A DNA stretch of 64,000 nt from Georhizobium profundi (GTDB lineage Bacteria; Pseudomonadota; Alphaproteobacteria; Rhizobiales; Rhizobiaceae). The stretch covers positions 372,001 through 436,000 of the forward strand of contig NZ_CP032509.1 of assembly GCF_003952725.1 (NCBI RefSeq), read 5' to 3'. Shown one piece after another: positions 36,229 to 60,539 of this stretch (the first letter of the stretch is position 1; the number at the start of each line of letters is the position of its first letter). The notes under the pieces were generated by a model. The model searched no databases. It saw only the letters and a list, made by a program, of their open reading frames with translations, and was not told the DNA's origin. A program made the position numbers and the translations under genes.

Positions 36229-36933
36229 TCAGGACTCGACGGGCGGGTCCAGTGCCTCCAGCGTCGAGCGGAAGCGGATCTTCGAACGCTCCACATGGCG
36301 GAAGAACGCTTCCTGCGCACGTTCGCGGTTGCCGGAAGCAAGCGCATCCACCATTTCGCGGTGCTCGCGGTTGGACACGGACAGGCCGCCGGCCTGAACG
36401 AGACCCCTTGCACGGGCAAGGTGGAGCTTGTTCACGAAGCTCTTATATTCCTTGACCAGCGTCTCGTTGCCGGTCGAGGTGACGAGGTAATCGTGGAAAG
36501 CGAGGTTGACCGGGTAATACTGATCGAAATCCTTGCCCGCGGCGATCTCGTCCATCTGATCGAGAAACGCGTTCAGCCGCGTCAGGATCTGGTCCGTGAC
36601 GAGATCGGCAAGAAGTCGGCCGGCCAGCCCGAAGACCGCAGCGCGGACGTCATAGATCTCCAGCGCTTCCTTGGCGGAAACCGAGCGCACGAAGACACCG
36701 CGGTTGCGGATGATGTCCACCAGACCCTTGGCCTGCAGGCTGCGCGTTGCCTCTCGCAGCGGACCGCGGCTGGTGCCGAAGCGGGTCGAGATCTGGATTT
36801 CGTTCAGCCGCTCGCCTGGTTTCAGCTCTCCGGTGAGGATGAGATGCTCGAGCTCACGCTCGAGCACTCCCGTCAGCGAAGACGTGCGCAAAACCATCAG
36901 GTCGCTACTGTCCGTCTTCATCTGCTGATACAT
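36229..36933 (-). CDS. GntR family regulator, FadR subfamily (FCD domain)
   Basis: The 234-residue repressor has an N-terminal winged helix (residues 18-85, with LKPGERLNEIQISTRFGTSRGPLREATRSL) and an all-helical FCD effector domain (about residues 90-220), which binds a metal and organic acids in this subfamily. It is followed by a near-palindromic operator-like site just upstream of its own start (36960-36971). It is the only regulator gene in the 36-60 kb organic-acid locus. Sensing of a dicarboxylate such as tartrate is an inference. Confidence 0.9.
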   Translation of the reverse strand: MYQQMKTDSSDLMVLRTSSLTGVLERELEHLILTGELKPGERLNEIQISTRFGTSRGPLREATRSLQAKGLVDIIRNRGVFVRSVSAKEALEIYDVRAAVFGLAGRLLADLVTDQILTRLNAFLDQMDEIAAGKDFDQYYPVNLAFHDYLVTSTGNETLVKEYKSFVNKLHLARARGLVQAGGLSVSNREHREMVDALASGNRERAQEAFFRHVERSKIRFRSTLEALDPPVES

Positions 36934-36959
36934 GATCGCTGCCCTTCAACCGATATTCA

Positions 36960-36971
36960 ATTGTAGGCAAT
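36960..36971. promoter_or_regulatory. GntR-type operator candidate upstream of gntR
   Basis: On the minus strand the site reads ATTGCCTACAAT, one base from the perfect palindrome ATTGTCTACAAT at 50192. It lies 27 bases before the gntR start and 43 bases past the end of tartrate dehydrogenase. It fits the GTMKAC-type core described for FadR-subfamily proteins and suggests autoregulation. Confidence 0.6.
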
Positions 36972-37014
36972 AAACATCGGTCGCGTAAGCTGCAACTGAT
37001 ATCGCAGCCGGTTG

Positions 37015-38073
37015 TCAGCCGAGCGCCTCCAGTAACGCTTCCGTGACCGCCTGCGTATTGGCCTGTCCGCCCATGTCCGGCGTGAACGGTCCCGACGCGC
37101 TGATCGTCTCGATCGCCGCCATCAGCTTGTCCGCTGCGGCCTTTTCGCCCAGATGCTCGAGCATCATCGCGCCCGTCCAGAACGCACCGATCGGGTTCGC
37201 GATGCCCTTGCCCATGATGTCGAAGGCCGAACCGTGGATCGGTTCGAACATGGACGGGCTCTTGGCCGACGGATCGATGTTGCCGGTCGCCCCATTACCG
37301 AGACTACCCGTCAGTGCCGAAGCAAGATCGGACAGGATGTCGGCATGGAGGTTCGTGGCGAGGATCGTATCGAAATTGCCGGGCTTCGTCACCATCATGG
37401 CGGCCATGGCGTCGACGAGTTTCCAGTCGACGTCGAGCTCTGGAAATTCCTTCAGAACATCGCGGCAGACTTCGTCCCACAGCACCATGCCGTGACGCTG
37501 CGCGTTCGACTTGGTCACCACAGTCAGCCGCTTGCGCGGCCGCGCCATCGCCGTTTCGCAGGCGAAGCGGCAGATGCGTTCGACACCAGCGCGGGTAAAG
37601 ATCGCGACATCCATCGCGACTTCGATCGGCAGTCCCGAATGGGCACGACCGCCGACGCCGGCATATTCGCCTTCGGAGTTTTCACGCACGATCACCCAGT
37701 CGATCTGCTCGCCGAGCTCCTTACGCAGCGGACCGACCGTGTCGCCGAGCAGCTTTGTCGGCCGCACATTGGCGTATTGGTCGAGTCCCTGGCAGATGGC
37801 GAGCCGCAATTCCCAAAGCGTGATGTGATCGGGAATGTTCGGGTCGCCAACGGCGCCGAAATAGATGGTGTCGAAGGCTTTCAGCTGTTCGACGCCATCC
37901 TTCGGCATCATCTCACCGGTGCGACGATAGTAGTCGGAGCCCCAGTCGAAGCGCGTGACCTCAACCGAAAACCCTTCGCTCTTCGCCAGCTTCTCGATGA
38001 CGGCGACACCGGCTTCGATGACCTCCGGCCCGACGCCGTCGCCGCCGATCGCTGCGATCTTATGCGTGCGCAT
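37015..38073 (-). CDS. tartrate dehydrogenase/decarboxylase family enzyme
   Basis: The 352-residue NAD-dependent beta-decarboxylating dehydrogenase matches tartrate dehydrogenase. It starts MRTHKIAAIGGDGVGPEVIEAG and has the metal and substrate segment WVIVRENSEGEYAGVGGRAHSG, the catalytic Lys near VVTKSNAQRHGM, and the C-terminal GSAFDIMGKGIANPIGAFW. It should oxidise or decarboxylate tartrate or related hydroxy acids. It is last in a leftward operon and overlaps the preceding gene by 14 bases. TarD lies in the same locus at 57734. Confidence 0.85.
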   Translation of the reverse strand: MRTHKIAAIGGDGVGPEVIEAGVAVIEKLAKSEGFSVEVTRFDWGSDYYRRTGEMMPKDGVEQLKAFDTIYFGAVGDPNIPDHITLWELRLAICQGLDQYANVRPTKLLGDTVGPLRKELGEQIDWVIVRENSEGEYAGVGGRAHSGLPIEVAMDVAIFTRAGVERICRFACETAMARPRKRLTVVTKSNAQRHGMVLWDEVCRDVLKEFPELDVDWKLVDAMAAMMVTKPGNFDTILATNLHADILSDLASALTGSLGNGATGNIDPSAKSPSMFEPIHGSAFDIMGKGIANPIGAFWTGAMMLEHLGEKAAADKLMAAIETISASGPFTPDMGGQANTQAVTEALLEALG

Positions 38074-39163
38074 GCGCCTCTCCCATGCCCTTCAAAATGC
38101 CGTCGATCATCTGGCGCTGGGTACCCGTGCCGCGAATATCCGGCGTGCGGGTGGCAGGATCGGACAGCGCCTGGTCGATGCCGGCTTTCATGATGCGCGA
38201 CATTTCGAGCGCCGAATCGATCTTGTGGTGGTGGCCCATCCAGTCGAACAGCATGCGTGTGGATTCGATCATCGCGAAAGGATTGGCGATCCCCTTGCCG
38301 GCGATGTCCGGCGCGGAGCCGTGGGTCGCCTGCGCCATCGCGATCGAGCCGCGACCGATGCAGAGGCCCGGCGCCATGCCGAGACCGCCGACGAGACCGG
38401 CCGCTTCGTCCGTCAGGATGTCACCGAACATATTGGTGGTGACGATCGTGTCGAAGCTTTGCGGATCGCGCACGAGGCGCATCGCCATCGTATCGACGAT
38501 CACCTCGTTCACCTCGACGTCGGGGAAGTCCTTCGCGACTTCGTAGCAGCTATCGACGAACATGCCGCAGCCGAGCTTGTAGACCGTGTTCTTGTGCACG
38601 AGCGTCAGCTTCTTGCGGCGGGAGCGGGCGATCTCGAAGGCCGCACGGGCAACCTTGGACGAACCCTCGACCGTGATGACGCGCACCGAGATGGTGACGT
38701 CATGCGTCGGGCGGAACTCGCCGGATCCCATCACGACGTTGCGGTCGGGCTGGAAGCCTTCGTTGTTCTCGCGCACGATCACCATGTCGATGTCGTCATG
38801 CAGGCAGCCGATGCCTGGGAAAGACCGTGTCGGGCGAACGTTTGCGAAGAGATCGAAACGCTTGCGCAGGATCGGATGCGGATTGATGGCTTCCGGCACC
38901 TTCGGATATTCGCGGTGACCGATCGGGCCGAGAATGAAGCCGTCGAGCTGGCCTAGCGTTTCCAGCGTGCCGTCCGGCATCGTGTGGCCGTGCGTATCGA
39001 GCGCACGACGGCCGATCGGCACGTCGATCCACTCGATCTGCATGCCGGAGGCGGCTGCGGCCGCCTTGGCGATCTCGACCGAAGCCGGCACCACTTCGTG
39101 GCCGATGTCGTCCCCTTCCAGGATACCGATGCGGAGGGATGACTTCTTCTGCACGTCACTCAT
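38060..39163 (-). CDS. isocitrate/isopropylmalate dehydrogenase family enzyme
   Basis: The 367-residue protein has the beta-decarboxylating dehydrogenase fold, with RIGILEGDDIGHEVVPASV, VIVRENNEGFQP, the Lys-bearing LTLVHKNTVYKLG and THGSAPDIAGKGIANPFAMI. It differs from the neighbouring tartrate dehydrogenase in the substrate loop (FANVRPTRSFPGIG), so its acid is probably different. Neither leucine nor TCA-cycle genes are adjacent, so it is unlikely to be the housekeeping leuB or icd. It overlaps the next gene by 14 bases and the MmgE/PrpD gene by four. Confidence 0.85.
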   Translation of the reverse strand: MSDVQKKSSLRIGILEGDDIGHEVVPASVEIAKAAAAASGMQIEWIDVPIGRRALDTHGHTMPDGTLETLGQLDGFILGPIGHREYPKVPEAINPHPILRKRFDLFANVRPTRSFPGIGCLHDDIDMVIVRENNEGFQPDRNVVMGSGEFRPTHDVTISVRVITVEGSSKVARAAFEIARSRRKKLTLVHKNTVYKLGCGMFVDSCYEVAKDFPDVEVNEVIVDTMAMRLVRDPQSFDTIVTTNMFGDILTDEAAGLVGGLGMAPGLCIGRGSIAMAQATHGSAPDIAGKGIANPFAMIESTRMLFDWMGHHHKIDSALEMSRIMKAGIDQALSDPATRTPDIRGTGTQRQMIDGILKGMGEAHAHA

Positions 39164-40560
39164 TCTGCTGCTGCCTTTGCTTCAGCCGAGCCGGGAACGC
39201 TGGCGCGTGCGACTTCGGCGGCATCCTTCAGCTCTTCCAGCTTCCAGGATGTCTCGAGGAGTTTCTTCGTTACGGCATCACCGACGACGAGCGCCGACTG
39301 AACCGTGAACTTGTGATCGATCTGCTGATCCGTGAGCGGCACTTCCATGGAGCCGATGGCACGTTCCACATGCTTGGACACGGTCGAGCCGTCTTCGAAT
39401 GTGACGAGGATGTCGACCGAGGCCTCGTGGCAGTTCTTGTCGGCGGTTGCCTTGGTCTTGTCACGCAGCGCGATGATTTCCGGGTCACGCACGAGTTCGT
39501 CCGTGAAGGCCGTCGGTGCGCCATCGCCCTTCAGCAGGGCTGCGGCGGCGGCGTGGTAGACCGAGAACTTGCCCTCCAGGCCCGTCTTTGGATCGGTCTT
39601 GCCGGTCAGTTCGAGCACCAGCGGGTGTGTCGTCAAAGCGACCGACTTGATCTGGCGGATCTTCTCGTCGCCAAGCTCTTCGCGCAGCTGCACGCAGCCG
39701 TCGATGGTCGGGTGGATGACGATGCCGCAGGCAAACGGCTTGTAGCTGTTCAGTGCCGATTCCCAGCGGGTGCCGAGGTCGTCGACGATCTCGGAATAAT
39801 CCTGCTTGTCGGACATGACGCTGGCGAAGCCGCGGGGCGCTTCGATAGCGCGCTCGGAGCTGTCGTAGTTGGCTTCGGCGAGGAGCGCCGCAAACATGCC
39901 GTTCTGGGCGGCGCGGCCGGGGTGGAAACTCTTGGTCATGGTGCCGAACATTTCGCGGAAGCCGGACGACTGCGTGGCTGCAAGACCGAATGCCCAGCGC
40001 ATCTGCTGCGCGTTGAGGCCAATGACCTTGCCGACCGCTGCCGCCGCACCGAAGACGCCGGCCGTGCCGGTGATGTGCCAGCCGCGATCATAGTGGTGCG
40101 GATAGACCGAGTTGCCGATGCGGCACTCGACTTCGACGCCGATGATGAGTGCAGTCAGAAGATCGTAGCCGGAGATTTCGCGGGTTTCGGCCAGCGCGAG
40201 AAGTGCCGAGGCGACGGGGCCGGCAGGGTGGATGATCGTCTTCAGGTGCGTGTCGTCATAGTCGAGCACGTGCGAGGTGATGCCGTTGACGAGCGCGGCA
40301 TGCAGCGCATCGAGCTTTTCCGTGCGGCCGATGACCGTCGAGGTCGCCTTGCCCGAGAAGGGTGCGATGGCAGCCAATGCGCGATCGGCCGTTTCGTGGC
40401 TGGCGCCGCCGACGGCGCAGCCTACCCAGTTGACGAAGGTGCGCAGGCCTTCGCGGCGCACTTCCGGCTGGATGTCGGATCCTTTGATGTTGACGACCCA
40501 ATCGGCAAGGATCTGGGTGACCTTCGGGGTGCCGGGAGCAGCTTCCTGATGCAGGCTCAT
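39160..40560 (-). CDS. MmgE/PrpD family protein (copy A)
   Basis: The 466-residue protein belongs to the MmgE/PrpD family, which includes 2-methylcitrate dehydratase, cis-aconitate decarboxylase and iminodisuccinate epimerase. The conserved acidic motif reads LDYDDTHLKTIIHPAGPVASALLALAE near residue 100. VECRIGNSVYPHHYDRGWHITGTAG follows. The substrate is probably a di- or tricarboxylic acid. It overlaps the isopropylmalate-dehydrogenase-like gene by ATGA and has GGAGAA upstream of its start. Its closest sister here by eye is the copy at 54572. Confidence 0.87.
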   Translation of the reverse strand: MSLHQEAAPGTPKVTQILADWVVNIKGSDIQPEVRREGLRTFVNWVGCAVGGASHETADRALAAIAPFSGKATSTVIGRTEKLDALHAALVNGITSHVLDYDDTHLKTIIHPAGPVASALLALAETREISGYDLLTALIIGVEVECRIGNSVYPHHYDRGWHITGTAGVFGAAAAVGKVIGLNAQQMRWAFGLAATQSSGFREMFGTMTKSFHPGRAAQNGMFAALLAEANYDSSERAIEAPRGFASVMSDKQDYSEIVDDLGTRWESALNSYKPFACGIVIHPTIDGCVQLREELGDEKIRQIKSVALTTHPLVLELTGKTDPKTGLEGKFSVYHAAAAALLKGDGAPTAFTDELVRDPEIIALRDKTKATADKNCHEASVDILVTFEDGSTVSKHVERAIGSMEVPLTDQQIDHKFTVQSALVVGDAVTKKLLETSWKLEELKDAAEVARASVPGSAEAKAAAE

Positions 40561-40635
40561 TGTTGTTTTCTCCTAAGCTTTGTTCTTATGCGCTTCCGGG
40601 CGGCGAACCTGCGTCCACTTCGCCGAATGCGCTGG

Positions 40636-41427
40636 TTAGAGCAGACCGCGGGCGATGCCGCCGTCGACATTGATCGTTTGCCCGGTGACGTAGCTGGCGC
40701 GCGGGCTCGCAAGCCAAACGACCATCGTTGCCACTTCCTCGGCCGTCGCAAAGCGACCCAGCGGAATGTCCTTGGAAAAGTCCTTGAGAACCTCTTCGCG
40801 CGAGCGACCCTCGTCGGCCGACATCTTGTCGGCGCGCTTGGTCCAGAGCGGCGTCAGCGTGCGACCGGGTGCAACGCAGTTCACGCGGATCTTGCGATCG
40901 GCGAGTTCGGCGGCGAGCGTCTTCGTCAGACCGAGCAGGCCGGCCTTGTGGACGTTGGAAACGATCTGATGCTGGTACGGCATCTTGGAGGCCGCAGCGC
41001 CGAGCGTCACGATCGCCGGGTTCTCGCCCTTCTCCAGAATTGGCAGCAGCGCACGGATGGCGCGCACCGTGGAGAGAATGTTGAAGGTGTAGTTGCCGAG
41101 CCAATCCTCGTCGGTGAGATCCTCGAAGGATGACCGGATGGAGCCGCCGACGGCGGTGACCAGCACGTCCAGCGCGCCCCAGCGCTCGGTGACCGAAGCG
41201 GCCAGTTCGTCGCCAGAACCGGTCTGCGTGACATCGCAGACAAGCGTTGCCGGCTTCAAGCCGACGGCGCCCTCGATGGCCGCTGCGGATGCGGCGAGGT
41301 TGTCGGCGCTGCGCGATGCGATGACGACATCCGCGCCCTCGCCCACCATCAAGGATGCAGACGCCTGGCCAATACCATAGCTGCCGCCGACGATGAGCGT
41401 GCGACGCCCATTATACTGAAGGTCCAA
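40636..41427 (-). CDS. SDR family protein lacking the catalytic Ser and Tyr (copy A)
   Basis: The 263-residue short-chain dehydrogenase-like protein has the cofactor motif VGGSYGIG at residues 13-20 and the end KIRVNCVAPG. Where family members have N-[IV]-S-S the protein has TLGA, and where they have Y-x-x-x-K it has S157-N-V-H-K161. Only the Lys is kept, so classical hydride transfer is doubtful. The enzyme may be a lyase, epimerase or binding protein. It overlaps the AbrB-family gene by 17 bases. Confidence 0.85.
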   Translation of the reverse strand: MDLQYNGRRTLIVGGSYGIGQASASLMVGEGADVVIASRSADNLAASAAAIEGAVGLKPATLVCDVTQTGSGDELAASVTERWGALDVLVTAVGGSIRSSFEDLTDEDWLGNYTFNILSTVRAIRALLPILEKGENPAIVTLGAAASKMPYQHQIVSNVHKAGLLGLTKTLAAELADRKIRVNCVAPGRTLTPLWTKRADKMSADEGRSREEVLKDFSKDIPLGRFATAEEVATMVVWLASPRASYVTGQTINVDGGIARGLL

Positions 41428-42538
41428 CGGTCCCTCCCTTCAATTTGAGATACAGCTTGAACACGAGGAGCACGGTCGACGACACGACGGCGATCCTCAA
41501 AACATGGAATGCGGTGACGACCTCGGCCTCCAGGTGCATCACTTGCGCCGTCAGAACCATTTCGGTCACGGCGGCAGGAGCGAGCGACAGGAAGCTTGTC
41601 GTGAAGGGCAGGTCGGTCGTCAGCGTCAGGACGAGCGCTCCAAACGCGGCGCAGCCGATCATGAAGATCGAAACCAGCACCGCAGCGAAGGTGACGCGCG
41701 GCAGTGCTGCCAGAAGGTCGCGCTTGAACTGGCAGCCGAGCCAGGTGCCGAGCATGATCTGCGCGATGACGATCAGGGTCGGCGGAATGGTGACTGTATA
41801 AAGACCGAGCACGCCGATGATGATGCCCATCAGGATCGGCCCGACGAGCCACGGGTTCGGCAGTGGCGTGGGCTTCAGCAGCCGCGCCATCAGATAACCG
41901 AGGAGCAGAGACAGGCCGACCAGCAGCCAGTTGGACCCTGCCGAGGCGGCATCGGGCGCGGTGCCGTGCTCGCCGAAGATCACGACGAGGAACGGCACGA
42001 TGGCGACGACGCCGGACACGCGCAACGCGTGGACCACGGCGACCGAGCCTGCCGCCCCGCCATATTCCTTGGCGACCGTTGCCATGTCGGCCACGCCGCC
42101 GGCTGCTGTCGCGAAGAAGGCGGTGACGTTGTCGACCTTGGCGAGCGGCTTGAACAGAAACGCCGCCGCCATGGTGAAGGCGATGACATAAAGCGTGCCG
42201 GCGATCATGGCCGGCAGCAGGCCTGCCATGGTGGCAAGCACCGCAGGCGTGAAACGCATGCCGACGGCGACGCCGATCGCCACCTGCCCCAGTTCACGGC
42301 CCATCGGCACGAGGGCCGATTCAAAGCCCATGATCGAGAAGGCGGCGAGCGCGAAAAACGGCCCCAGCATGAAGGGCAGGGGCATGTTGACGACGTCCGC
42401 CAGAAACCCGGCGGCCGTCGCTATTGCATAGGTCAGGACGAGCAGACCCCACCAGCGCGGCTGGCGATAACGCTTGACCCCACCGGGCTTGCCGCCCGGT
42501 GTGGAACGCGCCGCCACGTCTTTGCTGGCATCGAGCAC
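41411..42538 (-). CDS. AbrB family inner membrane transporter (copy A)
   Basis: The 375-residue protein has a cytoplasmic basic tail and about nine hydrophobic segments. It contains two copies of the AbrB membrane repeat (Pfam PF05145), with motifs such as PLPFMLGPFF, AGGVADMATVAKEYGG and LAPAAVTEMVLTAQV. The family is named from E. coli AbrB/AidB-linked protein and its function is not established. Location between two organic-acid enzymes suggests transport or export of such acids. It is not related to the DNA-binding AbrB of Bacillus. A second copy is at 56694. Confidence 0.8.
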   Translation of the reverse strand: MLDASKDVAARSTPGGKPGGVKRYRQPRWWGLLVLTYAIATAAGFLADVVNMPLPFMLGPFFALAAFSIMGFESALVPMGRELGQVAIGVAVGMRFTPAVLATMAGLLPAMIAGTLYVIAFTMAAAFLFKPLAKVDNVTAFFATAAGGVADMATVAKEYGGAAGSVAVVHALRVSGVVAIVPFLVVIFGEHGTAPDAASAGSNWLLVGLSLLLGYLMARLLKPTPLPNPWLVGPILMGIIIGVLGLYTVTIPPTLIVIAQIMLGTWLGCQFKRDLLAALPRVTFAAVLVSIFMIGCAAFGALVLTLTTDLPFTTSFLSLAPAAVTEMVLTAQVMHLEAEVVTAFHVLRIAVVSSTVLLVFKLYLKLKGGTVGPSV

Positions 42539-42569
42539 GGGATGCTTCCTGTCCGTTCGAGTGGCAGCG

Positions 42570-43994: not shown

Positions 43995-44099
43995 CTTCAG
44001 ATGTCCTCCCTAGCAATTTCCTGGATGAACCGGGAGCTCGCGACGGTGCCGCCCGAGCCCCATCTGGTCTCGGGCGGCAACAAACGTGAGTTTCTGTCG

Positions 44100-44111
44100 A
44101 TTGTCAACAAC
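44100..44111. promoter_or_regulatory. operator-like palindrome upstream of MmgE/PrpD copy B
   Basis: ATTGTCAACAAC contains the inverted arms TTGT and ACAA. It lies 106 bases upstream of the copy B start. Its TGTCAACAA also appears, on the other strand, at the two TctC promoters. It is a candidate site for the GntR regulator encoded at 36229. Confidence 0.55.
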
Positions 44112-44247
44112 TTGACGCGGGTTCCCTGCCGATGGCGGTATCCATTCCGCCGGAGCACCTGCATTACCCTACAATCTTGGGGTAGAAAGTCGTTGTCGTG
44201 CTGATGTTGCGACGCGTCAAAGCGATATTGCAGCGCAATCTGAAATA

Positions 44248-44279
44248 TTGTTGACAGTCGACTAATGGGGCCATAGCTT
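44248..44279 (+). promoter_or_regulatory. promoter with overlapping operator before the first tctC
   Basis: TTGTTGACAG (44248-44257) contains the -35 hexamer TTGACA at 44251-44256. A 17-base spacer leads to TAGCTT at 44274-44279. The same arrangement, including GGGGCC before the -10, recurs at 51386-51418, so the transporter genes are likely controlled alike, with a repressor blocking the -35. Confidence 0.6.
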
Positions 44280-44357
44280 CTCGAACGGCTTTGGGAGGAT
44301 GACCATAAGGCCCGGGCCCCTGAAGGCAAAGAGCTGGAACAGCTCAGGAGGACAACA

Positions 44358-45359: not shown

Positions 45360-45378
45360 TCATCTGCAACTTCATCGA

Positions 45379-50191: not shown

Positions 50192-50203
50192 ATTGTCTAC
50201 AAT
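50192..50203. promoter_or_regulatory. perfect operator palindrome in the hydrolase / enolase-superfamily divergent region
   Basis: ATTGTCTACAAT is a 12-base palindrome apart from its two central bases. It lies 24 bases from the hydrolase start and 48 bases from the rightward gene start. A partial half-site, TAGACAAT, lies 13 bases further right. It is the best match to a GntR FadR-type consensus in the locus. Confidence 0.65.
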
Positions 50204-51366: not shown

Positions 51367-51383
51367 TAGCTCTGGCCGAAATA

Positions 51384-51418
51384 AATTGTTGACACTTAAC
51401 AATTGCGGGGCCTAGTCT
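51384..51418 (+). promoter_or_regulatory. promoter and operator before the second tctC
   Basis: AATTGTT and AACAATT (51384-51390 with 51398-51404) form an inverted repeat around a -35 TTGACA at 51389-51394. A -10-like TAGTCT lies at 51413-51418 after 18 bases. The layout mirrors 44248-44279. It begins 18 bases after the preceding stop codon. Confidence 0.6.
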
Positions 51419-52472: not shown

Positions 52473-52490
52473 GCCATTTGGCTTTTGGAG

Positions 52491-52519
52491 CGGCGCCTTT
52501 CGGGGCGCCGTTCTTTTTT
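52491..52519 (+). terminator. attenuating terminator between tctC and tctB (set 2)
   Basis: CGGCGCC and GGCGCCG (52491-52497 with 52504-52510) form a 7-bp stem with a 6-base loop. A T-rich tract at 52511-52519 follows. Partial termination here would give more binding protein than membrane subunits. Confidence 0.75.
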
Positions 52520-52550
52520 CCAGTTCCTGCTTCCAGGGTGTGAGACCGTC

Positions 52551-53042: not shown

Positions 53043-53064
53043 GAGCGATTAAGGACGACTGACC

Positions 53065-54567: not shown

Positions 54568-54571
54568 TACC

Positions 54572-55945
54572 ATGAAGCACGACACACCGACCCAATCCGT
54601 CTCCGAGCGGCTCGCCGCCTGGGGCGTCTCGATGAGCCCCGAAAGCCTGTCGGACGCAACGCGCACCAAGAGCCGGGACATTCTCGTCGACATCGTCGGG
54701 CTCTGCGTCGCCGCGCGGCACACGGACTATGTCGCCGCGACCAAGGCGGCGTCGGAGCCGGGCGACCACATCGTGATCGGTCATGGCGAGCGGGTGTCGG
54801 CATCGAGTGCGGCGCTGATCAATGGCACGGCCGCGCATGGCGAGGATTTCGACGACACGTTCGAGGGCGGACCGGTGCATTCGGGCGTCGTCATCGTTCC
54901 CGCACTGCTCGCCGCCGCGCAGAAATACAAGCTCGGAAACGACCGGGTGATGCTGGGCATCGCAGCCGGCACGGAACTGCTCTGCCGGCTGGCGCTGACG
55001 CTGCCGAAGGCAGTGCACAAGGCAGGCTTCCATCCGACCGCGGTTCTCGGCACCTTCGCTGCCACCTTCGGAATCGCGGTTGCACGTGGCGCCGACGAGA
55101 AGACGATCGTCAACGCTCTCGGCATCGCCGGCTCCACCGCGTCCGGCATCATCGAATATCTCGGCGACGGCAGCTGGACCAAACGCATGCATCCGGGCTG
55201 GTCGGCGCAATCGGCGCTGCGGTCCTTCGCGATGGCCGAGGCCGGCTTCTTCGGCCCGCGCATGGTCTTCGAAGGCACCCATGGTGCGTTCAAGACGTTC
55301 GCACCGTCGATCGAGCCGAAGACCGACAAGCTGTTCGAGGGGCTCGGCGAGACCTTCGTGATGGATACGATCACCTTCAAGCCCTACCCGTGCGGCACGA
55401 TGGTGCAGCCCTATATCGACGCCGCCATGAAGCTGCGCGCAAAGAACGTGAAGCTCGACGGCATCAAGCGGATCGTCTGCAAGACGGCCGAAGGCATCGT
55501 GCACCGCCTCTGGGAGCCGATCGAACTGAAGCGTCGCCCGCCGACGGCCTATGCGGCGAAGTTTTCGACACCCTTCGGCGTCGCGCTCGGTCTTGCCCGC
55601 GGCCATGCCGATCTCGGCGATTTTACGGATGATGCCATCCAGGATGCCGAACTTCTGCGGCTTTGCGCTCTCGTCGATTTCGAGATCGACCCGAACAATC
55701 CCTACCCGGCCGCCTACACCGGGCATGTGCGGATCGAATACGAGGACGGCAGCATCGAGGAGGCCGATCAGGGCCATATGCGCGGCGGTTCGGAAGAGCC
55801 CCTGACGCGCGAAGAGATCGATGGGAAGTTCCGTGCCAACGTCGCCTTTGGCGGCCACGAGGATGCCGAAGCCCTGCTCAGCGCCTGCAATGAAATCGGC
55901 GCGATGAAGGGTGGATACGAACTGATTGTGGAGCTTGCGAAATGA
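54572..55945 (+). CDS. MmgE/PrpD family protein (copy C)
   Basis: ATG 54572 gives 457 residues. The family motif appears as HGEDFDDTFEGGPVHSGVVIVPALL, and later KPYPCGTMVQPYIDAAMKL marks the conserved C-terminal domain start. It follows tctA by four bases and overlaps the SDR gene by four, so these are one transcript. By eye it is nearer to copy A at 39160 than to the two copies with the SPGVSIKP block. Confidence 0.87.
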   Translation: MKHDTPTQSVSERLAAWGVSMSPESLSDATRTKSRDILVDIVGLCVAARHTDYVAATKAASEPGDHIVIGHGERVSASSAALINGTAAHGEDFDDTFEGGPVHSGVVIVPALLAAAQKYKLGNDRVMLGIAAGTELLCRLALTLPKAVHKAGFHPTAVLGTFAATFGIAVARGADEKTIVNALGIAGSTASGIIEYLGDGSWTKRMHPGWSAQSALRSFAMAEAGFFGPRMVFEGTHGAFKTFAPSIEPKTDKLFEGLGETFVMDTITFKPYPCGTMVQPYIDAAMKLRAKNVKLDGIKRIVCKTAEGIVHRLWEPIELKRRPPTAYAAKFSTPFGVALGLARGHADLGDFTDDAIQDAELLRLCALVDFEIDPNNPYPAAYTGHVRIEYEDGSIEEADQGHMRGGSEEPLTREEIDGKFRANVAFGGHEDAEALLSACNEIGAMKGGYELIVELAK

Positions 55946-56697
55946 CCACTGAAGACCTGAAGGGGCGCGTCGCGCTCGTCACCGGCGCCTCGCGCAACAT
56001 CGGTCGCGCGATCGCGGTCGCGCTCGCCTCGCGTGGTGCCGACATCGTCGTGCATGTTGCGCGCGACACCAATGCCGGCGCCGAAACCGTCGCCGCCGTG
56101 GAAGCGCTCGGGCGCAAGGCTGAGCTGCTTTCCGGCGATCTGTCCGACCCTGAAACGGCACGCAGCGTCGTCGCCGATGCAGCCGCTGCCTTCGGCCGCT
56201 TGGACATCGTGGTCAACAATGCAGCAATCCGGCCCGAAGCGGCCTTCGGCGACATCACCTTTGCCGATTGGCGGCAGGTGATGGGCGTTGCGCTCGATGC
56301 GGTGTTCCTCGTCAGCCAGGCAGCACTGCCGCATCTCGAAGCGAGCGACCAGGCGGCGATCATCAATCTCGGCGGCTTGACCGGACACACCGGTGCTGCG
56401 CACCGCGCCCATGTCATCACCGCGAAAGCGGGCGTCGTCGGGCTCACCAAGGCCATGGCGCACGAACTGTCACCGAAGGGCATCACCGCCAACTGCGTGG
56501 CGCCGGGCCTGATCGATACGAAGCGCGTTTCTAACGATGGCGCGGCGCCGAAACATCACGATACGCGCAAGACGCTGGTCGGGCGCCGGGGCACACCGGA
56601 AGACGTGGCCGAAGCCGTCGCCTATCTTGCCGGACCAGCCGGACGCTACATCACCGGCGAAACGCTGCATGTGAATGGTGGCACCTACCTTTCATGA
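55942..56697 (+). CDS. SDR family protein lacking the catalytic Ser and Tyr (copy B)
   Basis: The 251-residue protein has cofactor motif TGASRNIG (residues 14-21) and NNAAI. At the active site the usual N-[IV]-S-S reads NLGG (residues 142-145) and Y-x-x-x-K reads V158-I-T-A-K162. The end GETLHVNGGTYLS is typical. So it too keeps only Lys, matching copy A at 40636. It overlaps both neighbours by four bases, suggesting tight coupling of its expression. Confidence 0.85.
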   Translation: MTTEDLKGRVALVTGASRNIGRAIAVALASRGADIVVHVARDTNAGAETVAAVEALGRKAELLSGDLSDPETARSVVADAAAAFGRLDIVVNNAAIRPEAAFGDITFADWRQVMGVALDAVFLVSQAALPHLEASDQAAIINLGGLTGHTGAAHRAHVITAKAGVVGLTKAMAHELSPKGITANCVAPGLIDTKRVSNDGAAPKHHDTRKTLVGRRGTPEDVAEAVAYLAGPAGRYITGETLHVNGGTYLS

Positions 56698-57737
56698 CCC
56701 TTTCCGCCAACCTGCAGCTCGCGGGGGGCATCCTCGCCTCGGCCATCTGCGGGTGGCTCGCGTCGCTCACGGGGATCCCGCTGGCCTGGATCCTCGGTGC
56801 GATGGCGGGAAGCGCGATCTACGCGAACACCATCGGGCTTGGCGGCAAAACGAAATATGTGCGGCGGCTCGGACAGCTCCTGATCGGGGCTGCAACGGCC
56901 GCCGTCCTTACACCGAACATCCTCGGCGAGCTTCTCTCCTATTTCCCGGCAATGGTGGCGGCCGCCATCGTCGCCAATGCGCTCGGCGTGCTGCTGGCCT
57001 TTCCGCTGGCGAAGATCGCCAATGTCGATCGCAAGAGCGCGCTTCTGTCAACGCTGCCGGCCGGCATGTCCGAGATGGCGTCGCTCGCCCGCGAAACCGG
57101 CGCGCAGGCCGACGTGGTCATGGTCGTCCACACGTTGCGCGTGGTGATGATCGTCGTGCTGGTGCCGTTTCTCTTCGGGATCGACCGCAGCGCCGTGCAG
57201 GCAACGATCGATCCATCGGCGAGCATTATCGCGCTTTTCGCCTGCCTCGTCGGCGGGCTTGTCCTGTCGATCGTCACGTCAAAGCTCGGCGTTCTCAATC
57301 CATGGGTGATCATGCCCATGGCCGTCGGCATCGTGCTCGTCTCCTTCGAAGTCTCGATCGCCCAGATGCCCTGGGGTGTGCTGGTCGTTGCGCAGATCCT
57401 CATCGGCTTCTCGCTCGGCGCGCGGCTGAAGAAGGAAGATTTCGCCCGGGTGCCGCGCGCAGCGCTTGCCGCGGTCATCTGCAGCGGCGGGCTGATCGCG
57501 ATCATGATCTTTGGTTTCGTGCCGATCCTGCAGCTCTTCGTCGATGAGAGCCCTATATCTCTTGCCCTCGGCGTCGCGCCCGGCGGTCTCGGCGAGATGA
57601 TCGCTTCGGCCAAGGCACTCGGCGCTGCCTCGGCCATAGTCGCCGGTTTCCAATTCACGCGATCCTTCCTCACCAATGTGATCGCGCCACCCCTCCTCAT
57701 TCGATTTGCCGCCAACACGAAAGGCCCCAACACATGA
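56694..57737 (+). CDS. AbrB family inner membrane transporter (copy B)
   Basis: The 347-residue protein has nine or so hydrophobic segments and two AbrB repeats, with AGMSEMASLARETGAQADVVMVVHTLRVV and LGVAPGGLGEMIASAKALG. The first matches in position AGGVADMATVAKEYGG of the copy at 41411. It overlaps the SDR gene and tarD by four bases each. Function of the family is not established. Organic-acid transport is an inference from context. Confidence 0.8.
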   Translation: MTLSANLQLAGGILASAICGWLASLTGIPLAWILGAMAGSAIYANTIGLGGKTKYVRRLGQLLIGAATAAVLTPNILGELLSYFPAMVAAAIVANALGVLLAFPLAKIANVDRKSALLSTLPAGMSEMASLARETGAQADVVMVVHTLRVVMIVVLVPFLFGIDRSAVQATIDPSASIIALFACLVGGLVLSIVTSKLGVLNPWVIMPMAVGIVLVSFEVSIAQMPWGVLVVAQILIGFSLGARLKKEDFARVPRAALAAVICSGGLIAIMIFGFVPILQLFVDESPISLALGVAPGGLGEMIASAKALGAASAIVAGFQFTRSFLTNVIAPPLLIRFAANTKGPNT

Positions 57738-58903
57738 AAATCGTCGACATCCGCGAAGCGGTCGTCTCGATCTCCTCGCCCATCCGCAATGCGTTCATCG
57801 ACTTCTCCAAGATGACGGCGAGCGTCGTGGCGGTGGTGACCGACCAGGTGAAGGACGGCAAGCCGGTCGTCGGCTACGGCTTCAATTCCAACGGGCGTTA
57901 CGCGGCAAGCGGGCTGTTGAACGAACGCTTCCTGCCGCGCCTGCGCGAAGCCGCTCCCGAAAGCCTGATCCGCGACGACGGCACCAATCTCGACCCGCAC
58001 AAGATCTGGGCGACGATGATGGTCAACGAGAAGCCCGGCGGGCACGGCGAGCGCTCGGTCGCCGTTGGCGTCGTCGACATGGCGGTGTGGGACGCGGTCG
58101 CCAAGATCAACGGCGTGCCGCTCTACAAGCACCTCGCCGATACCTATGGCGATGGCACGCACGACGATTCGGTCTTCGTCTATGCCGCGGGCGGCTACTA
58201 CTATCCCGGCAAGGACGACAGCCAGTTGCAGGATGAAATGCGCCGCTACCGGGCCATGGGCTACGAGGTGGTGAAGATGAAGATCGGCGGCGCACCGCTC
58301 GACGAAGACATCCGCCGCATCGAGGCCGTTCTGGAAGTGGTCGGCGAAGGCAAATATCTCGCCGTCGACGCCAATGGCCGCTTCGACCTGGAAACCGCGC
58401 TTGCCTATGCGGAGGCGATGAAGCCCTACAACCTCTTCTGGTACGAAGAGGCGGGCGATCCGCTCGACTATCACATCCAGAACGAGCTCTCGAAGGTCTA
58501 CCCGGGCCCGATGGCGACCGGCGAGAACCTCTTCTCGCACCAGGATGCCCGCAACCTCGCACGCTATGGCGGCATGCGCCCGGATCGCGACTGGCTGCAG
58601 TTCGACTGCGCACTGTCCTATGGCCTCGTCGAATACATGCGAACGCTGGAGGCCATCGGCAAGGAAGGCTTCTCCAGCCGGAACTGCGTTCCGCATGGTG
58701 GGCACCAGCTGTCGCTGAACATCGCAGCCGGCCTGAAGCTTGGTGGCAATGAAAGCTATCCGGAAGTGTTCAAGCCGTTCTGCGGCTTTGCCGACGGCAT
58801 CAAGGTCGAGAACGGCCGCGTCGGCCTGCCGGACGCACCCGGGATCGGCTTCGAGCAGAACTCGGCGCTGATTAAGGCGATGCGAGACGCCACCAACACC
58901 TAG
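57734..58903 (+). CDS. tarD: D(-)-tartrate dehydratase (TarD-like, enolase superfamily)
   Basis: The 389-residue enzyme converts D-tartrate to oxaloacetate. Extended stretches agree with the Bradyrhizobium TarD as I remember it, for example GERSVAVG, VYAAGGYYYPGK and GGMRPDRDWLQFDCALSYGL. The active site is complete: Lys181 and Lys183 in KMKIGG, metal ligands Asp212, Glu238 and Glu264, and His321 in VPHGGHQ, each one less than the TarD numbering. Its TAG stop is the first triplet of an intergenic repeat. Confidence 0.9.
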   Translation: MKIVDIREAVVSISSPIRNAFIDFSKMTASVVAVVTDQVKDGKPVVGYGFNSNGRYAASGLLNERFLPRLREAAPESLIRDDGTNLDPHKIWATMMVNEKPGGHGERSVAVGVVDMAVWDAVAKINGVPLYKHLADTYGDGTHDDSVFVYAAGGYYYPGKDDSQLQDEMRRYRAMGYEVVKMKIGGAPLDEDIRRIEAVLEVVGEGKYLAVDANGRFDLETALAYAEAMKPYNLFWYEEAGDPLDYHIQNELSKVYPGPMATGENLFSHQDARNLARYGGMRPDRDWLQFDCALSYGLVEYMRTLEAIGKEGFSSRNCVPHGGHQLSLNIAAGLKLGGNESYPEVFKPFCGFADGIKVENGRVGLPDAPGIGFEQNSALIKAMRDATNT

Positions 58904-59004
58904 AGCAATTTCGCTTTTCTTCGAATCGCTCAATGACTCTAGGTCTTTGATTTGTCGCGTTTTCCAACGGTGAACCGGTAACCACTTCACCTGGAAACGC
59001 TCTA
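58901..59004. repeat. palindromic intergenic repeat of rhizobial type
   Basis: The element begins TAGAGC and ends GCTCTA (58999-59004). Its right half (58957-59000) folds as GCGTTTTCC..GGTGAACCGG against CCACTTCACC..GGAAACGC. Related elements are abundant between genes in Mesorhizobium and relatives, from memory. The first base triplet serves as the stop codon of tarD. Confidence 0.7.
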
Positions 59005-59057
59005 AGCGGGCGACTTGACCGCACATCACAAGACGTCAGAATAAGGGAGGAAACCCC

Positions 59058-60539
59058 ATGAGCACCCCCGCGCGCAAGCCTGACACGCAGGCTGTCCAGA
59101 GCGCCGATCCGCATGCGCATCTTGCCGGCCTGACCAAGGCCGCCGCATCATTCGTCGCCAAGCACCGCTTCGAGGATCTCAACGACGAGACGCTCCGCAT
59201 CGCGCGGCGCTGCGTCCTCGACGGCCTGGCCGTTGCGCTCGCCGGATCCGAACAGCCGGGCATGGCGCCGCTTGGCGCCTATATCGACAGCCTTGGCGGC
59301 ACGCCGCAGGCGCGGTTGATCGGGTATGCGTCGCGCAAGGTGCCAGCGCACCTTGCCGCACTCTGGAGCGCAACTGCCGGCCACGCGATGGACTGGGACG
59401 ACACGCAACTCGCCGAAGGTCCAGGCCGGCCCTACGGCCTCCTGATGCATCCGACCATGCCGCCGCTGGTTGCGGCGCTGACCATGGCGGACCTCGTCGC
59501 CGGCGAAACGGGCACACCGGTCGACGGCAAGACGTTCCTGACGTCCTTCACGGCTGGCTTCGAGGTGGGCTGCAAGATCGCCGAGGCGATCAACCCAGAC
59601 CACTACATGCGCGGCTTCCATACGTCCGGCACAATCGGCACCTTCGCGGCCGCCGCAGCGGCGGCCAAGATGCTCGGCATGAACGAGGAAGACGTGGCAA
59701 AGACCCTCGGCGTCGCTGCTTCCATGGCTTCCGGCATTCGCGCGGGCTTCGGCACGATGACAAAGCCGATGCATGTCGGCCGCGCCGCGGAAAACGGCAT
59801 CACAGCGGCTCTTCTCGTGCGGCACGGCTTTTCGGCCAATCCGGAAGCGCTCGACGGTCGCTGGGGCTATCTCGCCATTGCCGGACCGGGCGGCGAGCCG
59901 GCGCTGGTCAACCACAAGTTCGGCAAGCCCCACACGATGGAAAGCCCGGGCGTCTCGATCAAGCCGTATCCATCGGGCGTGCTGACGCATCCGAGCATGG
60001 ATGCACTTCTGTTCCTGATGCGCGAGAACGGGCTTGAGGCGAAAGACGTCCAGTCCGTGAAACTCAAGGCAGGCAGCAACGTTCTCGGCCCGATCCGCTT
60101 TCGCATTGCGCGCACCGAACTCGAGGGAAAGTTCTCCTTCGCGTTCCTTTTGACGGCGATCATTCTTGCCGGTCGTGCCGGCAAGGCGGAATTCACCGAC
60201 GAGTTCGTGTCATCGGCAGCCTCACAGGACATGCAGGCCCGCATCGAGACCGAGTTCGATCAATCCATCGAGGATATGGGCTGGGATCGCATCCGCTCGA
60301 AGATCGAAGTCACGACGACCGATGGCCGGGTCATCGAGCGTTGGGCGGACGAGAACTATCGGGGCAGCCCACACAACCCGCTCTCCGATACGGAGCTCGA
60401 AGGCAAGTTCCGCGACTGCGCCGAAGGCCTCATCGACGAGGCACGGATGCAGCGGGTGTTCGACACCGTCTGGTCGCTGGAGAACAGCACGGATGTCGGA
60501 GCGATCTTCGACCTGCTCGACTGGAACGCCACGCGCTAG
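59058..60539 (+). CDS. MmgE/PrpD family protein (copy D)
   Basis: The 493-residue protein has the family motif AMDWDDTQLAEGPGRPYGLLMHPTMP near residue 110 and the SPGVSIKPYPSGVLTHPSM block shared with copy B at 42570. It starts with an AAGGGAGG site upstream. It is separated from tarD by the palindromic repeat, and no operator-like site is visible, so it may be read through from tarD. It is the last gene of the organic-acid locus. Confidence 0.87.
   Translation: MSTPARKPDTQAVQSADPHAHLAGLTKAAASFVAKHRFEDLNDETLRIARRCVLDGLAVALAGSEQPGMAPLGAYIDSLGGTPQARLIGYASRKVPAHLAALWSATAGHAMDWDDTQLAEGPGRPYGLLMHPTMPPLVAALTMADLVAGETGTPVDGKTFLTSFTAGFEVGCKIAEAINPDHYMRGFHTSGTIGTFAAAAAAAKMLGMNEEDVAKTLGVAASMASGIRAGFGTMTKPMHVGRAAENGITAALLVRHGFSANPEALDGRWGYLAIAGPGGEPALVNHKFGKPHTMESPGVSIKPYPSGVLTHPSMDALLFLMRENGLEAKDVQSVKLKAGSNVLGPIRFRIARTELEGKFSFAFLLTAIILAGRAGKAEFTDEFVSSAASQDMQARIETEFDQSIEDMGWDRIRSKIEVTTTDGRVIERWADENYRGSPHNPLSDTELEGKFRDCAEGLIDEARMQRVFDTVWSLENSTDVGAIFDLLDWNATR

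What the first reader, a model, noticed from the sequence alone, without database searches (positions are those of the whole stretch)
36229..60539. Two-fold organic-acid catabolic locus: MmgE/PrpD, SDR, AbrB transporter and TctCBA in both halves, plus tartrate enzymes
The left half (leftward operon plus divergent tctCBA) and the right half each contain two MmgE/PrpD genes, an SDR, an AbrB-family transporter and a complete TctCBA. The four PrpD proteins fall by eye into two pairs across the halves (42570 with 59058; 39160 with 54572). Tartrate dehydrogenase and TarD anchor the substrate class. This layout is not a pathway I know; the paired PrpD, AbrB and Tyr-less SDR genes could form an undescribed module for importing, racemising or dehydrating tartrate-like or branched dicarboxylic acids. 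The duplication may reflect two stereoisomers or two related substrates.
Basis: partly seen in the sequence, partly recalled or inferred. Interest (0 to 1): 0.78.

Follow-up and report, generated by a model that had tools for sequence, protein, structure and literature searches.

The report
Conserved regulon for substituted succinate acids
A soil-type bacterium carries a 24-kilobase gene island, shared with quite distant bacteria and probably run by one switch, that looks built to import substituted four-carbon diacids such as tartrate, correct their handedness and burn them, and it includes several enzymes whose exact reactions are unknown.

Summary
The main reading changes. (1) The halves are not a recent duplication: left and right copies are 22-39% identical, and the PrpD and SDR copies fall with orthologs elsewhere. 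PrpD 42570 and 59058 are old sisters (98/96); 39160 and 54572 are not shown to pair. In 83 related loci it occurs 187 times outside module gene bodies; permuted motifs average 4.8. (3) The two-half layout recurs in 10 of 15 relatives asked. In 7 of these 10, PrpD-D is contiguous with an acyl-CoA dehydrogenase and a CoA-transferase, as in the published methylsuccinate cluster. (4) Tartrate dehydrogenase and D-tartrate dehydratase are well supported. (5) Both SDR types lack Ser and Tyr in 51 of 51 sequences. Best reading: one horizontally spread regulon that imports substituted C4/C5 dicarboxylates and uses MmgE/PrpD enzymes mainly as stereo-isomerases feeding oxidative-decarboxylation, dehydration and CoA branches. 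The substrate is unproven. New variant of a known kind.

The parts
36229..36933 (-). GntR-family regulator with FCD domain; likely regulator of the island
   Evidence: PF07729 84.6 and PF00392 56.2 bits; a homolog at 40% identity or more in 61 of 83 PrpD-A loci
36960..36971 (.). Operator-like site ATTGTAGGCAAT, 1 mismatch, upstream of the GntR gene
37015..38073 (-). Tartrate dehydrogenase (TtuC-type)
   Evidence: TIGR02089 502.6 > cut-off 470.4
38060..39163 (-). Beta-decarboxylating dehydrogenase of the isocitrate/homoisocitrate/isopropylmalate family
   Evidence: PF00180 279.7 bits; best solved relatives homoisocitrate DH; present in 60 of 83 PrpD-A loci
39160..40560 (-). PrpD-B, MmgE/PrpD protein with the epimerase-type residues
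   Evidence: PF03972 259.7 bits; residues
40636..41427 (-). SDR-L, SDR without catalytic Ser and Tyr (TTG start)
   Evidence: Tyr replaced by Ser in 23 of 23
41411..42538 (-). AbrB-L, AbrB-family (TIGR03082) membrane protein
   Evidence: PF05145 223.3 bits, TIGR03082 204.3; next to SDR-L in 22 of 22 loci that have SDR-L
42570..43994 (-). PrpD-A, MmgE/PrpD protein, closest solved relative IDS epimerase
44100..44111 (.). Operator-like site ATTGTCAACAAC in the divergent prpD-A/tctC-L promoter gap
44247..44258 (.). Operator-like site ATTGTTGACAGT in the same gap
44358..45359 (+). TctC-L solute receptor
   Evidence: PF03401 58.2 bits
45429..45896 (+). TctB-L
   Evidence: PF07331 42.2 bits
45907..47445 (+). 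TctA-L
   Evidence: PF01970 381 bits
47602..49224 (-). Four-domain rhodanese, Cys loop CAGRTR in domain 2
   Evidence: PF00581, 4 stretches; loop invariant in 39 of 39 homologs at 40% identity or more
49221..50168 (-). Fluoroacetate-dehalogenase-type alpha/beta hydrolase (open frame runs to 50258; the true start is probably at or below 50168)
   Evidence: 8 active-site positions invariant in 51 of 51 homologs at 60% identity or more
50192..50203 (.). Perfect operator-like site ATTGTCTACAAT between the hydrolase and the enolase-superfamily gene
50251..51366 (+). MLE1, divergent enolase-superfamily protein; long relatives' loci have it or a PdxA-like gene, never both
   Evidence: solved relatives
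51385..51396 (.). Operator-like site ATTGTTGACACT upstream of tctC-R
51522..52472 (+). TctC-R
   Evidence: PF03401 102.1 bits
52485..53042 (+). TctB-R
   Evidence: PF07331 56.8 bits
53065..54567 (+). TctA-R
   Evidence: PF01970 463.5 bits
54572..55945 (+). PrpD-C, MmgE/PrpD protein with His in place of the conserved Tyr
   Evidence: 22 of 22 clade members, the window's included
55942..56697 (+). SDR-R, SDR without catalytic Ser and Tyr
   Evidence: Val at the Tyr position in 28 of 28
56694..57737 (+). AbrB-R
   Evidence: PF05145 182.3 bits
57734..58903 (+). TarD-like D-tartrate dehydratase
   Evidence: 68% identical to 2DW7 with KxK and His kept
59058..60539 (+). PrpD-D, sister clade of PrpD-A; in 7 of 10 relatives contiguous with an acyl-CoA dehydrogenase and a CoA-transferase III

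Best explanation
The locus is one regulon on a horizontally spread catabolic island. A locus-encoded FCD-GntR protein is inferred to bind ATTGTNNACAAT in four promoter gaps: its own, prpD-A/tctC-L, hydrolase/MLE1, and tctC-R. Two TctCBA systems (shown by family) import substituted C4/C5 dicarboxylates (inferred). The MmgE/PrpD proteins act mainly as isomerases at the carbon next to a carboxylate (inferred from their residues and from IDS epimerase and methylsuccinate isomerase). They feed three kinds of exit. One is oxidative decarboxylation by the tartrate dehydrogenase and the isocitrate-family enzyme. The second is dehydration of D-tartrate to oxaloacetate by TarD. The third, seen in relatives, is CoA transfer and dehydrogenation as for methylsuccinate. 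The dehalogenase-type hydrolase would open or displace an alpha-substituent (epoxide, halogen or similar) to give a hydroxy acid; the rhodanese partner would handle sulfur (both inferred, weak). The halves are long-diverged transcription units with complementary tasks, not a duplication.
For: Operator: all five sites with 1 mismatch or fewer in the 64-kb window lie in the locus, in promoter gaps. The genome has 44 such sites in 4.36 Mb against 12 for the reversed control, so 0.22-0.25 are expected in 24 kb and 5 are seen (Poisson 3.5e-6 to 6.1e-6; motif chosen after looking). In 83 related loci there are 187 sites outside and 16 inside module gene bodies. The 19 permuted half-sites average 4.8 outside, largest 17. 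179 of 187 lie at the start of a gene of my reference set. Sites precede leaders (PrpD-A 54 of 80, hydrolase 41 of 52, TctC-L 22 of 28, TctC-R 14 of 26, MLE1 9 of 14) and rarely or never inner genes (isocitrate-family DH 0 of 57, AbrB-L 0 of 37, SDR-L 0 of 21). Layout: in 10 of 15 relatives asked, TctA-R, PrpD-C, SDR-R, AbrB-R and PrpD-D follow the left part on the same contig, with TarD in place in 9 of the 10. ACAD, CoA-transferase and PrpD-D are contiguous on one strand in 7 of the 10. Chemistry: TIGR02089 over cut-off; TarD 68%; PrpD-A, B and D match IDS epimerase at all nine positions examined; characterised members act on a four-carbon dicarboxylate core (PMC12290011, passages). Spread: PrpD-A at E <= 1e-150 only in the own genus among 60 relatives but 70-94% identical in bacteria named as other genera, betaproteobacteria included, and 75-79% on three plasmids.
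Against: No substrate, binding or growth data exist. The loci are kin, so site counts are not independent, and the motif was picked after inspection; at two mismatches the window is only modestly above chance (16 against a mean of 10, 3 of 100 shuffles). The gap before PrpD-D (58904-59057) showed no such palindrome. 16 of 83 loci have no site outside gene bodies. The GntR-operator link is by position only; other GntR proteins may use similar sites. The window itself lacks ACAD and CoA-transferase between TarD and PrpD-D; its own set stands with PrpD-E 5-10 kb away and no genome site lies near it. PrpD-A occurs without either half in small betaproteobacterial loci with an ABC transporter, so the core may serve a narrower task. 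PrpD-C lacks the conserved Tyr. Apart from the rhodanese I recognised no sulfur gene among the genes I scanned.
Confidence: 0.6

Rival explanations
1. Tartrate-only island: the PrpD proteins racemise or epimerise L-, meso- and D-tartrate so that TtuC and TarD can consume every isomer; the hydrolase makes tartrate from epoxysuccinate.
For: TtuC and TarD are the two best-assigned enzymes. In four same-family genomes (G012, G022, G024, G028) a 68-70% TarD homolog stands near Tct genes, and in G022, G024 and G028 also a tartrate dehydrogenase. PrpD-D directly follows TarD on the same strand in the window and in 3 of 10 relatives.
Against: In those four stretches no PrpD was found, so TarD does not need one. 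In 7 of 10 relatives PrpD-D is contiguous with ACAD and a CoA-transferase, which tartrate does not require. Only 2 of 83 PrpD-A loci have TarD in the stretch held, though flanks are cut at 10 kb and 13 of 15 genomes asked have TarD somewhere.
Confidence: 0.2
2. Detoxification or use of alpha-substituted succinates (epoxy-, halo- or mercapto-succinate, or itaconate-derived compounds) is the core task, led by the hydrolase-rhodanese pair; the rest finishes the resulting hydroxy acids.
For: Hydrolase active site fully kept in 51 of 51 and rhodanese loop in 39 of 39. The pair is adjacent on one strand in 33 of 39 loci with the rhodanese and has an operator-like site at its promoter. Paralogous 4-domain rhodaneses stand beside a mercaptosuccinate-dioxygenase-like gene in 17 of 29 loci, and the published msdo clusters contain a rhodanese (PMC5373536, passages).
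Against: No thiol-dioxygenase match in the PrpD-A loci or the window. No Rfam match, hence no fluoride riboswitch, in 33000-64000. 26 of 83 PrpD-A loci have neither hydrolase nor rhodanese, some because the contig ends.
Confidence: 0.12
3. One reading: one module duplicated in place, each half for one stereoisomer.
For: Same families on both sides; PrpD-A and PrpD-D are sister clades (98/96).
Against: Identities of 22-39% across halves. PrpD and SDR clades have orthologs in many genera. The left half has two dehydrogenases and no enolase-type gene, the right half the reverse. SDR-L and SDR-R replace Tyr differently and do not group in the free tree (AU p 0.43, so not rejected).
Confidence: 0.04
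4. Two ordinary organic-acid clusters that happen to be neighbours, without joint function.
For: Pieces of each half also occur in loci without the other.
Against: Shared operator-like sites; the two-half order is kept in 10 of 15 relatives asked.
Confidence: 0.04

Closest known systems
Itaconate/methylsuccinate degradation cluster (ich, mcd, mmgE, ict, ccl), PMC12290011 and PMC9875883
   Same: MmgE/PrpD isomerase beside an acyl-CoA dehydrogenase and a CoA-transferase; the same three families are contiguous at PrpD-D in 7 of 10 relatives and at PrpD-E in the window's genome
   Different: The window's right half has no ACAD, CoA-transferase or hydratase; PrpD-D is 30% identical to PrpD-E; this island adds Tct pairs, AbrB, Tyr-less SDRs, TarD, two beta-decarboxylating dehydrogenases and the hydrolase-rhodanese pair
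Tartrate utilisation genes (TctCBA, tartrate dehydrogenase, TarD)
   Same: Tartrate dehydrogenase over the NCBIfam cut-off, TarD 68% identical to 2DW7, Tct transporters in the same locus
   Different: Four MmgE/PrpD genes and a probable shared regulon with unrelated enzymes
Mercaptosuccinate degradation cluster (msdo, cystathionine beta-lyase, rhodanese; PMC5373536)
   Same: Rhodanese gene beside the pathway; C4-dicarboxylate substrate
   Different: No thiol dioxygenase here; the rhodanese is paired with a dehalogenase-type hydrolase
IDS epimerase (2HP0) and other MmgE/PrpD enzymes
   Same: Sequence family and catalytic positions in PrpD-A, B, D
   Different: Substrate unknown; PrpD-C has His for Tyr
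Fluoroacetate dehalogenases (3R3U and relatives)
   Same: Nucleophile, carboxylate-binding Arg pair, halide-pocket and triad positions kept
   Different: Sits in a dicarboxylate locus, frame overlapping a rhodanese by four bases; natural substrate unknown

Membership tests
Tartrate dehydrogenase (TIGR02089) | Whole-protein score above the curated cut-off | tested here: met
   502.6 against 470.4
D-tartrate dehydratase TarD | High identity to the solved enzyme, with KxK and the catalytic His | tested here: met
   68% over 383 columns, KMK and PHGGH kept; that 2DW7 is TarD, and the roles of these residues, are recalled
D-tartrate dehydratase TarD | Activity on D-tartrate | not testable with these tools
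   -
MmgE/PrpD | Both Pfam domains over cut-off | tested here: met
MmgE/PrpD isomerase type | His, Asp/Glu, His, Tyr, His, Lys, Lys set | tested here: met
   PrpD-A, B, D: nine positions match IDS epimerase
MmgE/PrpD isomerase type | Same set in PrpD-C | tested here: not met
   Tyr is His in PrpD-C and in 22 of 22 of its clade, itself included
Methylsuccinate/itaconate cluster | MmgE with acyl-CoA dehydrogenase, CoA-transferase, hydratase and lyase | tested here: not met
   None of the partners was recognised in the window's right half; 7 of 10 relatives have ACAD and CoA-transferase beside PrpD-D; PrpD-E has ACAD, CoA-transferase and a FAS1_DH protein, and no lyase among the neighbours scanned
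Classical SDR dehydrogenase | Catalytic Ser, Tyr and Lys | tested here: not met
   Lys kept, Tyr is Ser or Val, Ser position Gly or Ala in 51 of 51 (the Ser column is read from the printed alignment)
Fluoroacetate dehalogenase type | Asp nucleophile, Arg pair, His-Trp-Tyr halide pocket, Asp-His | tested here: met
   All eight invariant in 51 of 51 homologs; roles recalled
Fluoroacetate dehalogenase type | Activity on a halocarboxylate | not testable with these tools
   -
Rhodanese sulfurtransferase | Cysteine active loop | tested here: met
   CAGRTR in domain 2 in 39 of 39
Mercaptosuccinate cluster | msdo gene beside the rhodanese | tested here: not met
   no hit at E 1e-5 in the window, L001 or L002-L104
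Mandelate-racemase-type enolase superfamily (MLE1) | KxK, three acidic metal ligands, Asp-His dyad | tested here: inconclusive
   first Lys and two ligands kept; Gln and Asn at other positions, 12 of 12; alignment is gapped at the second Lys; motif recalled
FCD-GntR regulon | Regulator in the locus and a shared palindrome at its promoters | tested here: met
FCD-GntR regulon | Binding of the regulator to the sites | not testable with these tools

The most novel reading that the evidence does not exclude
The island encodes an undescribed pathway for alpha-substituted succinates. A dehalogenase-type hydrolase coupled to a rhodanese strips a leaving group at C2 (epoxide, halogen or sulfur-linked). 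MmgE/PrpD isomerases, including a His-for-Tyr type, set the stereochemistry. Two lineages of Ser/Tyr-less SDRs carry out non-standard chemistry on the intermediates.
Probability: 0.15. Interest if true: 0.8.

Novelty: new variant of a known kind. Interest (0 to 1): 0.62.

Why it matters
MmgE/PrpD proteins are numerous and mostly uncharacterised (PMC12290011, passages). Here four clades of them, two clades of catalytically odd SDRs, AbrB-family membrane proteins and a dehalogenase-rhodanese pair are tied into one small probable regulon with a readable operator and a narrow chemical class. One inducer screen and a handful of purified enzymes could give functions to several orphan families found across alpha- and betaproteobacteria.

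Tried and rejected
Duplication was tested by pairwise identity, a PrpD tree of 90 rows and a careful tree of 41 rows with AU tests and an SDR tree of 40 rows. It is not supported, though the B+C and SDR-L+R unions are not rejected (p 0.386 and 0.43). All three trees use chosen subsets: 81 of 166 PrpD frames found plus the window's five and four references in the first, 41 rows in the second with the longest branches left out; 7 SDR-L, 10 SDR-R and 23 background SDRs that I had picked for holding YxxxK in the third. The program warned of joined long branches in each.

Fluoride release was considered: no Rfam match in 33000-64000. A thiol dioxygenase partner for the rhodanese was sought in the PrpD-A loci and not found. 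Other genome copies of the operator: I fetched surroundings of seven further sites; the only other perfect one (1404906) lies inside a 1660-aa frame; for the other six I only listed frames and identified no gene. An eighth stretch (L181) was fetched and not analysed. A TauD-like gene occurs in 4 of 83 loci; in L033 no site lies near it, in the other three I did not compare positions; it was dropped. trans-Epoxysuccinate hydrolase as a precedent was not found in what the paper searches listed (10 of 79 listed) nor in one review. A structure model of AbrB was wanted but never obtained.

Exclusive occurrence of MLE1 and PdxA (PdxA in 0 of 11 long loci with MLE1 and 46 of 50 without) is not corrected for kinship, so I use it only as a hint. 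SDR-R-type genes adjoin PrpD-C-type genes in only 14 of 27 loci of the PrpD-A set.

In one search my Ser column was one position off; the statement on Ser is read from the printed alignment. In one search I first scanned a wrong frame for TctB-R; one search corrects it. In one search the last Lys column was one off; one search corrects it. In one search the frame-picking hid SDR-L in L009 and some other genes, so counts are lower bounds.

Paper searches: (10 in all, open-licence PMC only). None of the papers listed describes this gene set by title or opening abstract. Papers seen: PMC12290011, PMC9875883, PMC5373536 and PMC6429283 as passages; others as search listings only.

Full report
WHAT IS THERE. 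The left operon (minus strand) runs PrpD-A, AbrB-L, SDR-L, PrpD-B, an isocitrate-family dehydrogenase, a tartrate dehydrogenase and a GntR-FCD regulator, with divergent tctCBA-L. The right half (plus strand) runs MLE1 (enolase superfamily), tctCBA-R, PrpD-C, SDR-R, AbrB-R, TarD and PrpD-D. Between them, on the minus strand, lie a fluoroacetate-dehalogenase-type hydrolase and a four-domain rhodanese whose frames overlap by four bases. The genome has five MmgE/PrpD genes; the fifth (PrpD-E) lies about 5 kb beyond the window.

NOT A DUPLICATION. Identities across the halves are: PrpD A-D 39%, B-D 30%, A-C 27%, B-C 27%, SDR 33%, AbrB 30%, TctA 35%, TctC 22% over 180 residues, and no TctB match at E 1e-3. 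In a careful tree of 41 PrpD rows each of the clades A, B, C and D is solid (100/100) and contains proteins from several families of bacteria. A and D are sisters (98/96). B and C are not together in the best tree, but holding them together is not rejected (AU p 0.386). SDR-L and SDR-R are each solid clades; their union is absent from the best tree and not rejected (p 0.43). So these copies are old paralogs with their own histories, not one module copied in place.

CONSERVATION. I gathered 83 loci around PrpD-A: the best 80 of 561 candidates in a collection with one genome per species and 3 plasmids. Of 83, homologs at my identity limits occur as follows: GntR 61, isocitrate-family DH 60, PdxA-like 58, hydrolase 51, TtuC 46, an Fbp-type ABC permease 41, rhodanese 39, PrpD-B 38, AbrB-L 38, SDR-L 22, MLE1 12, TarD 2 (contig ends and 10-kb flanks make these lower bounds). 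SDR-L is next to AbrB-L in 22 of 22 and to PrpD-B in 21 of 22. The rhodanese is next to the hydrolase in 33 of 39. SDR-R-type genes are next to PrpD-C-type genes in 14 of 27. For 15 of these genomes, picked because their loci resemble the window's left part, I asked for TarD and SDR-R: 13 have TarD at E <= 1e-100 and 12 SDR-R at E <= 1e-60. The other five are L010 and L017 (neither gene), L014 (TarD only), and L012 and L020 (TarD and SDR-R on different contigs). In all 10 flanks TctA-R, PrpD-C, SDR-R, AbrB-R and PrpD-D are present in the same order. TarD is in place in 9 (in L212 it is split over two frames; L213 has a 68% copy elsewhere). PrpD-D is on the other strand in L214 and L218, and its match in L218 is partial. 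Among 60 sampled relatives only the own genus has PrpD-A at E <= 1e-150 (3 of 60, the window's own genome counted), while orthologs of 70-94% occur in bacteria named as other genera, betaproteobacteria included, and of 75-79% on three plasmids. That is the pattern of a horizontally spread island. The nearest named relative is Rhizobium albus NBRC 110149 (L005, PrpD-A 100%).

ONE REGULON. The prpD-A/tctC-L promoter gaps of 20 loci share ATTGTCAACA, on either strand, in 17. From these and from the window's own gaps I set the palindrome ATTGTNNACAAT. With at most one mismatch it occurs five times in the 64-kb window, all in this locus and all in promoter gaps: 36960, 44100, 44247, 50192 (perfect) and 51385. 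With two mismatches allowed the window count (16) is only modestly above chance (mean 10; 3 of 100 shuffles reach it), so the strength lies in the close matches and their placement. The gap before PrpD-D (58904-59057) showed none. The genome has 44 sites at the one-mismatch level, the reversed control 12; 5 in 24 kb against 0.22-0.25 expected is a Poisson 3.5e-6 to 6.1e-6, with the caveat that the motif was chosen after looking. Across the 83 loci there are 187 sites outside and 16 inside module gene bodies (28.2 against 1.7 per 100 kb); 19 permuted half-sites average 4.8 outside, largest 17, and 67 of 83 loci have at least one site outside. Of the 187, 179 lie within 350 bases upstream to 60 inside the start of a gene of my reference set. 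Leaders carry sites (PrpD-A 54 of 80, hydrolase 41 of 52, TctC-L 22 of 28, TctC-R 14 of 26, MLE1 9 of 14, GntR 37 of 70). Mixed cases are TtuC 18 of 63, FbpC 15 of 46, PdxA 10 of 50. Inner genes have few or none (isocitrate-family DH 0 of 57, AbrB-L 0 of 37, TctA-L 0 of 27, SDR-L 0 of 21, rhodanese 4 of 38, PrpD-B types 4 of 41). The hydrolase, MLE1 and TctC-R promoters of the other loci had not been looked at when the motif was set. The loci are kin, so counts are not independent events. The simplest reading is that the locus GntR controls both halves and the central pair; binding is inferred.

CHEMISTRY. Best assigned are tartrate dehydrogenase (502.6 against cut-off 470.4) and TarD (68% to 2DW7, KMK and the His kept). 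The nearest solved relative of PrpD-A, B and C is IDS epimerase. PrpD-A, B and D match it at all nine positions examined; PrpD-C and its clade (22 of 22, itself included) have His for the Tyr. PMC12290011 (passages) reports that characterised members share a four-carbon dicarboxylate core, and names IDS epimerase and methylsuccinate isomerase; PMC9875883 (passages) gives the growth evidence for the latter. In 7 of the 10 right flanks an acyl-CoA dehydrogenase, a family III CoA-transferase and PrpD-D are contiguous on one strand. That ACAD is 71-74% identical to the one next to PrpD-E in the window's genome, whose cluster LysR, PrpD-E, ACAD, CoA-transferase, FAS1_DH protein matches the published methylsuccinate cluster apart from the lyase, which I did not find among the neighbours scanned. 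PrpD-D is thus more likely an isomerase of a substituted succinate than of tartrate alone, although in the window and in 3 of the 10 relatives it directly follows TarD.

THE CENTRAL PAIR. The hydrolase keeps all eight recalled fluoroacetate-dehalogenase positions in 51 of 51 homologs. Domain 2 of the rhodanese keeps CAGRTR in 39 of 39; the corresponding loops I looked at in the other three domains have no Cys in the window's protein. Paralogous rhodaneses elsewhere in the class (50 of 289 genomes at E <= 1e-60) stand beside a gene resembling mercaptosuccinate dioxygenase (8VNI, 4.6e-34) in 17 of the 29 loci returned. The published msdo clusters contain a rhodanese and a cystathionine beta-lyase (PMC5373536, passages), and one of my loci shows a Cys/Met-metabolism PLP enzyme there (L117). 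This hints at sulfur, but I recognised no other sulfur gene among those scanned.

ODD ENZYMES. Both SDR types keep the Lys and lack Tyr (Ser in 23 of 23 SDR-L, Val in 28 of 28 SDR-R type, homologs over 150 bits) and have Gly or Ala where Ser is expected, 51 of 51. Of the 30 best SDR genes of the genome, 25 align Tyr there; of the other five one is SDR-R itself, and three hold a YxxxK in the expected region, so their alignment is doubtful. MLE1 keeps a first Lys and two metal ligands but has Gln and Asn at other expected positions in 12 of 12.

VERDICT. A conserved, horizontally spread, probably single-regulon island for substituted C4/C5 dicarboxylates: known families in a new combination. The substrate and several reactions are open.

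Noticed in passing
L001 5751-10307 (genome C1:437751-442307, beyond the window's right end): PrpD-E with acyl-CoA dehydrogenase, family III CoA-transferase, FAS1_DH protein and a divergent LysR gene: looks like the published itaconate/methylsuccinate cluster, without an identified lyase.
   Followed up: partly
window 50251-51366 and related loci: MLE1 and the PdxA-like gene exclude each other: of 61 long loci, 0 of 11 with MLE1 have PdxA, 46 of 50 without it do. Possible non-orthologous replacement.
   Followed up: partly
L117-L144: Four-domain rhodanese beside a mercaptosuccinate-dioxygenase-like gene in 17 of the 29 loci L116-L144; eight such frames had no Pfam match at E 1e-3.
   Followed up: partly
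window 44358-45359: TctC-L begins with a weak twin-arginine signal match (21.2 bits, cut-off 22.7).
   Followed up: no
L033, L035, L036, L037: Burkholderiales versions add a TauD-family dioxygenase, weak matches to a pair of half-size chromate-transporter genes and a LysR gene near PrpD-A, and have 0-2 operator-like sites each.
   Followed up: no
L040, L051, L060, L063, L065, L067, L072, L079: These betaproteobacterial PrpD-A loci are small: ABC transporter of the Fbp type, PrpD-A, a GntR gene in 7 of 8 and a PdxA-like or isocitrate-family gene in some, with no Tct, AbrB or SDR match.
   Followed up: no
window 32764-33408: Autoinducer (acyl-homoserine-lactone type) synthase gene left of the island.
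   Followed up: no
window 60715-63698 and L001 3599-5740: HlyD-like protein (26.4 bits, cut-off 22.2), a 459-aa protein without Pfam match and a cellulose-synthase-like glycosyltransferase separate PrpD-D from the PrpD-E cluster.
   Followed up: no
genome C1:888553 and C1:3077136: Two more AbrB-family genes outside the island; the first lies about 9 kb from a further TctA gene at C1:878196.
   Followed up: no
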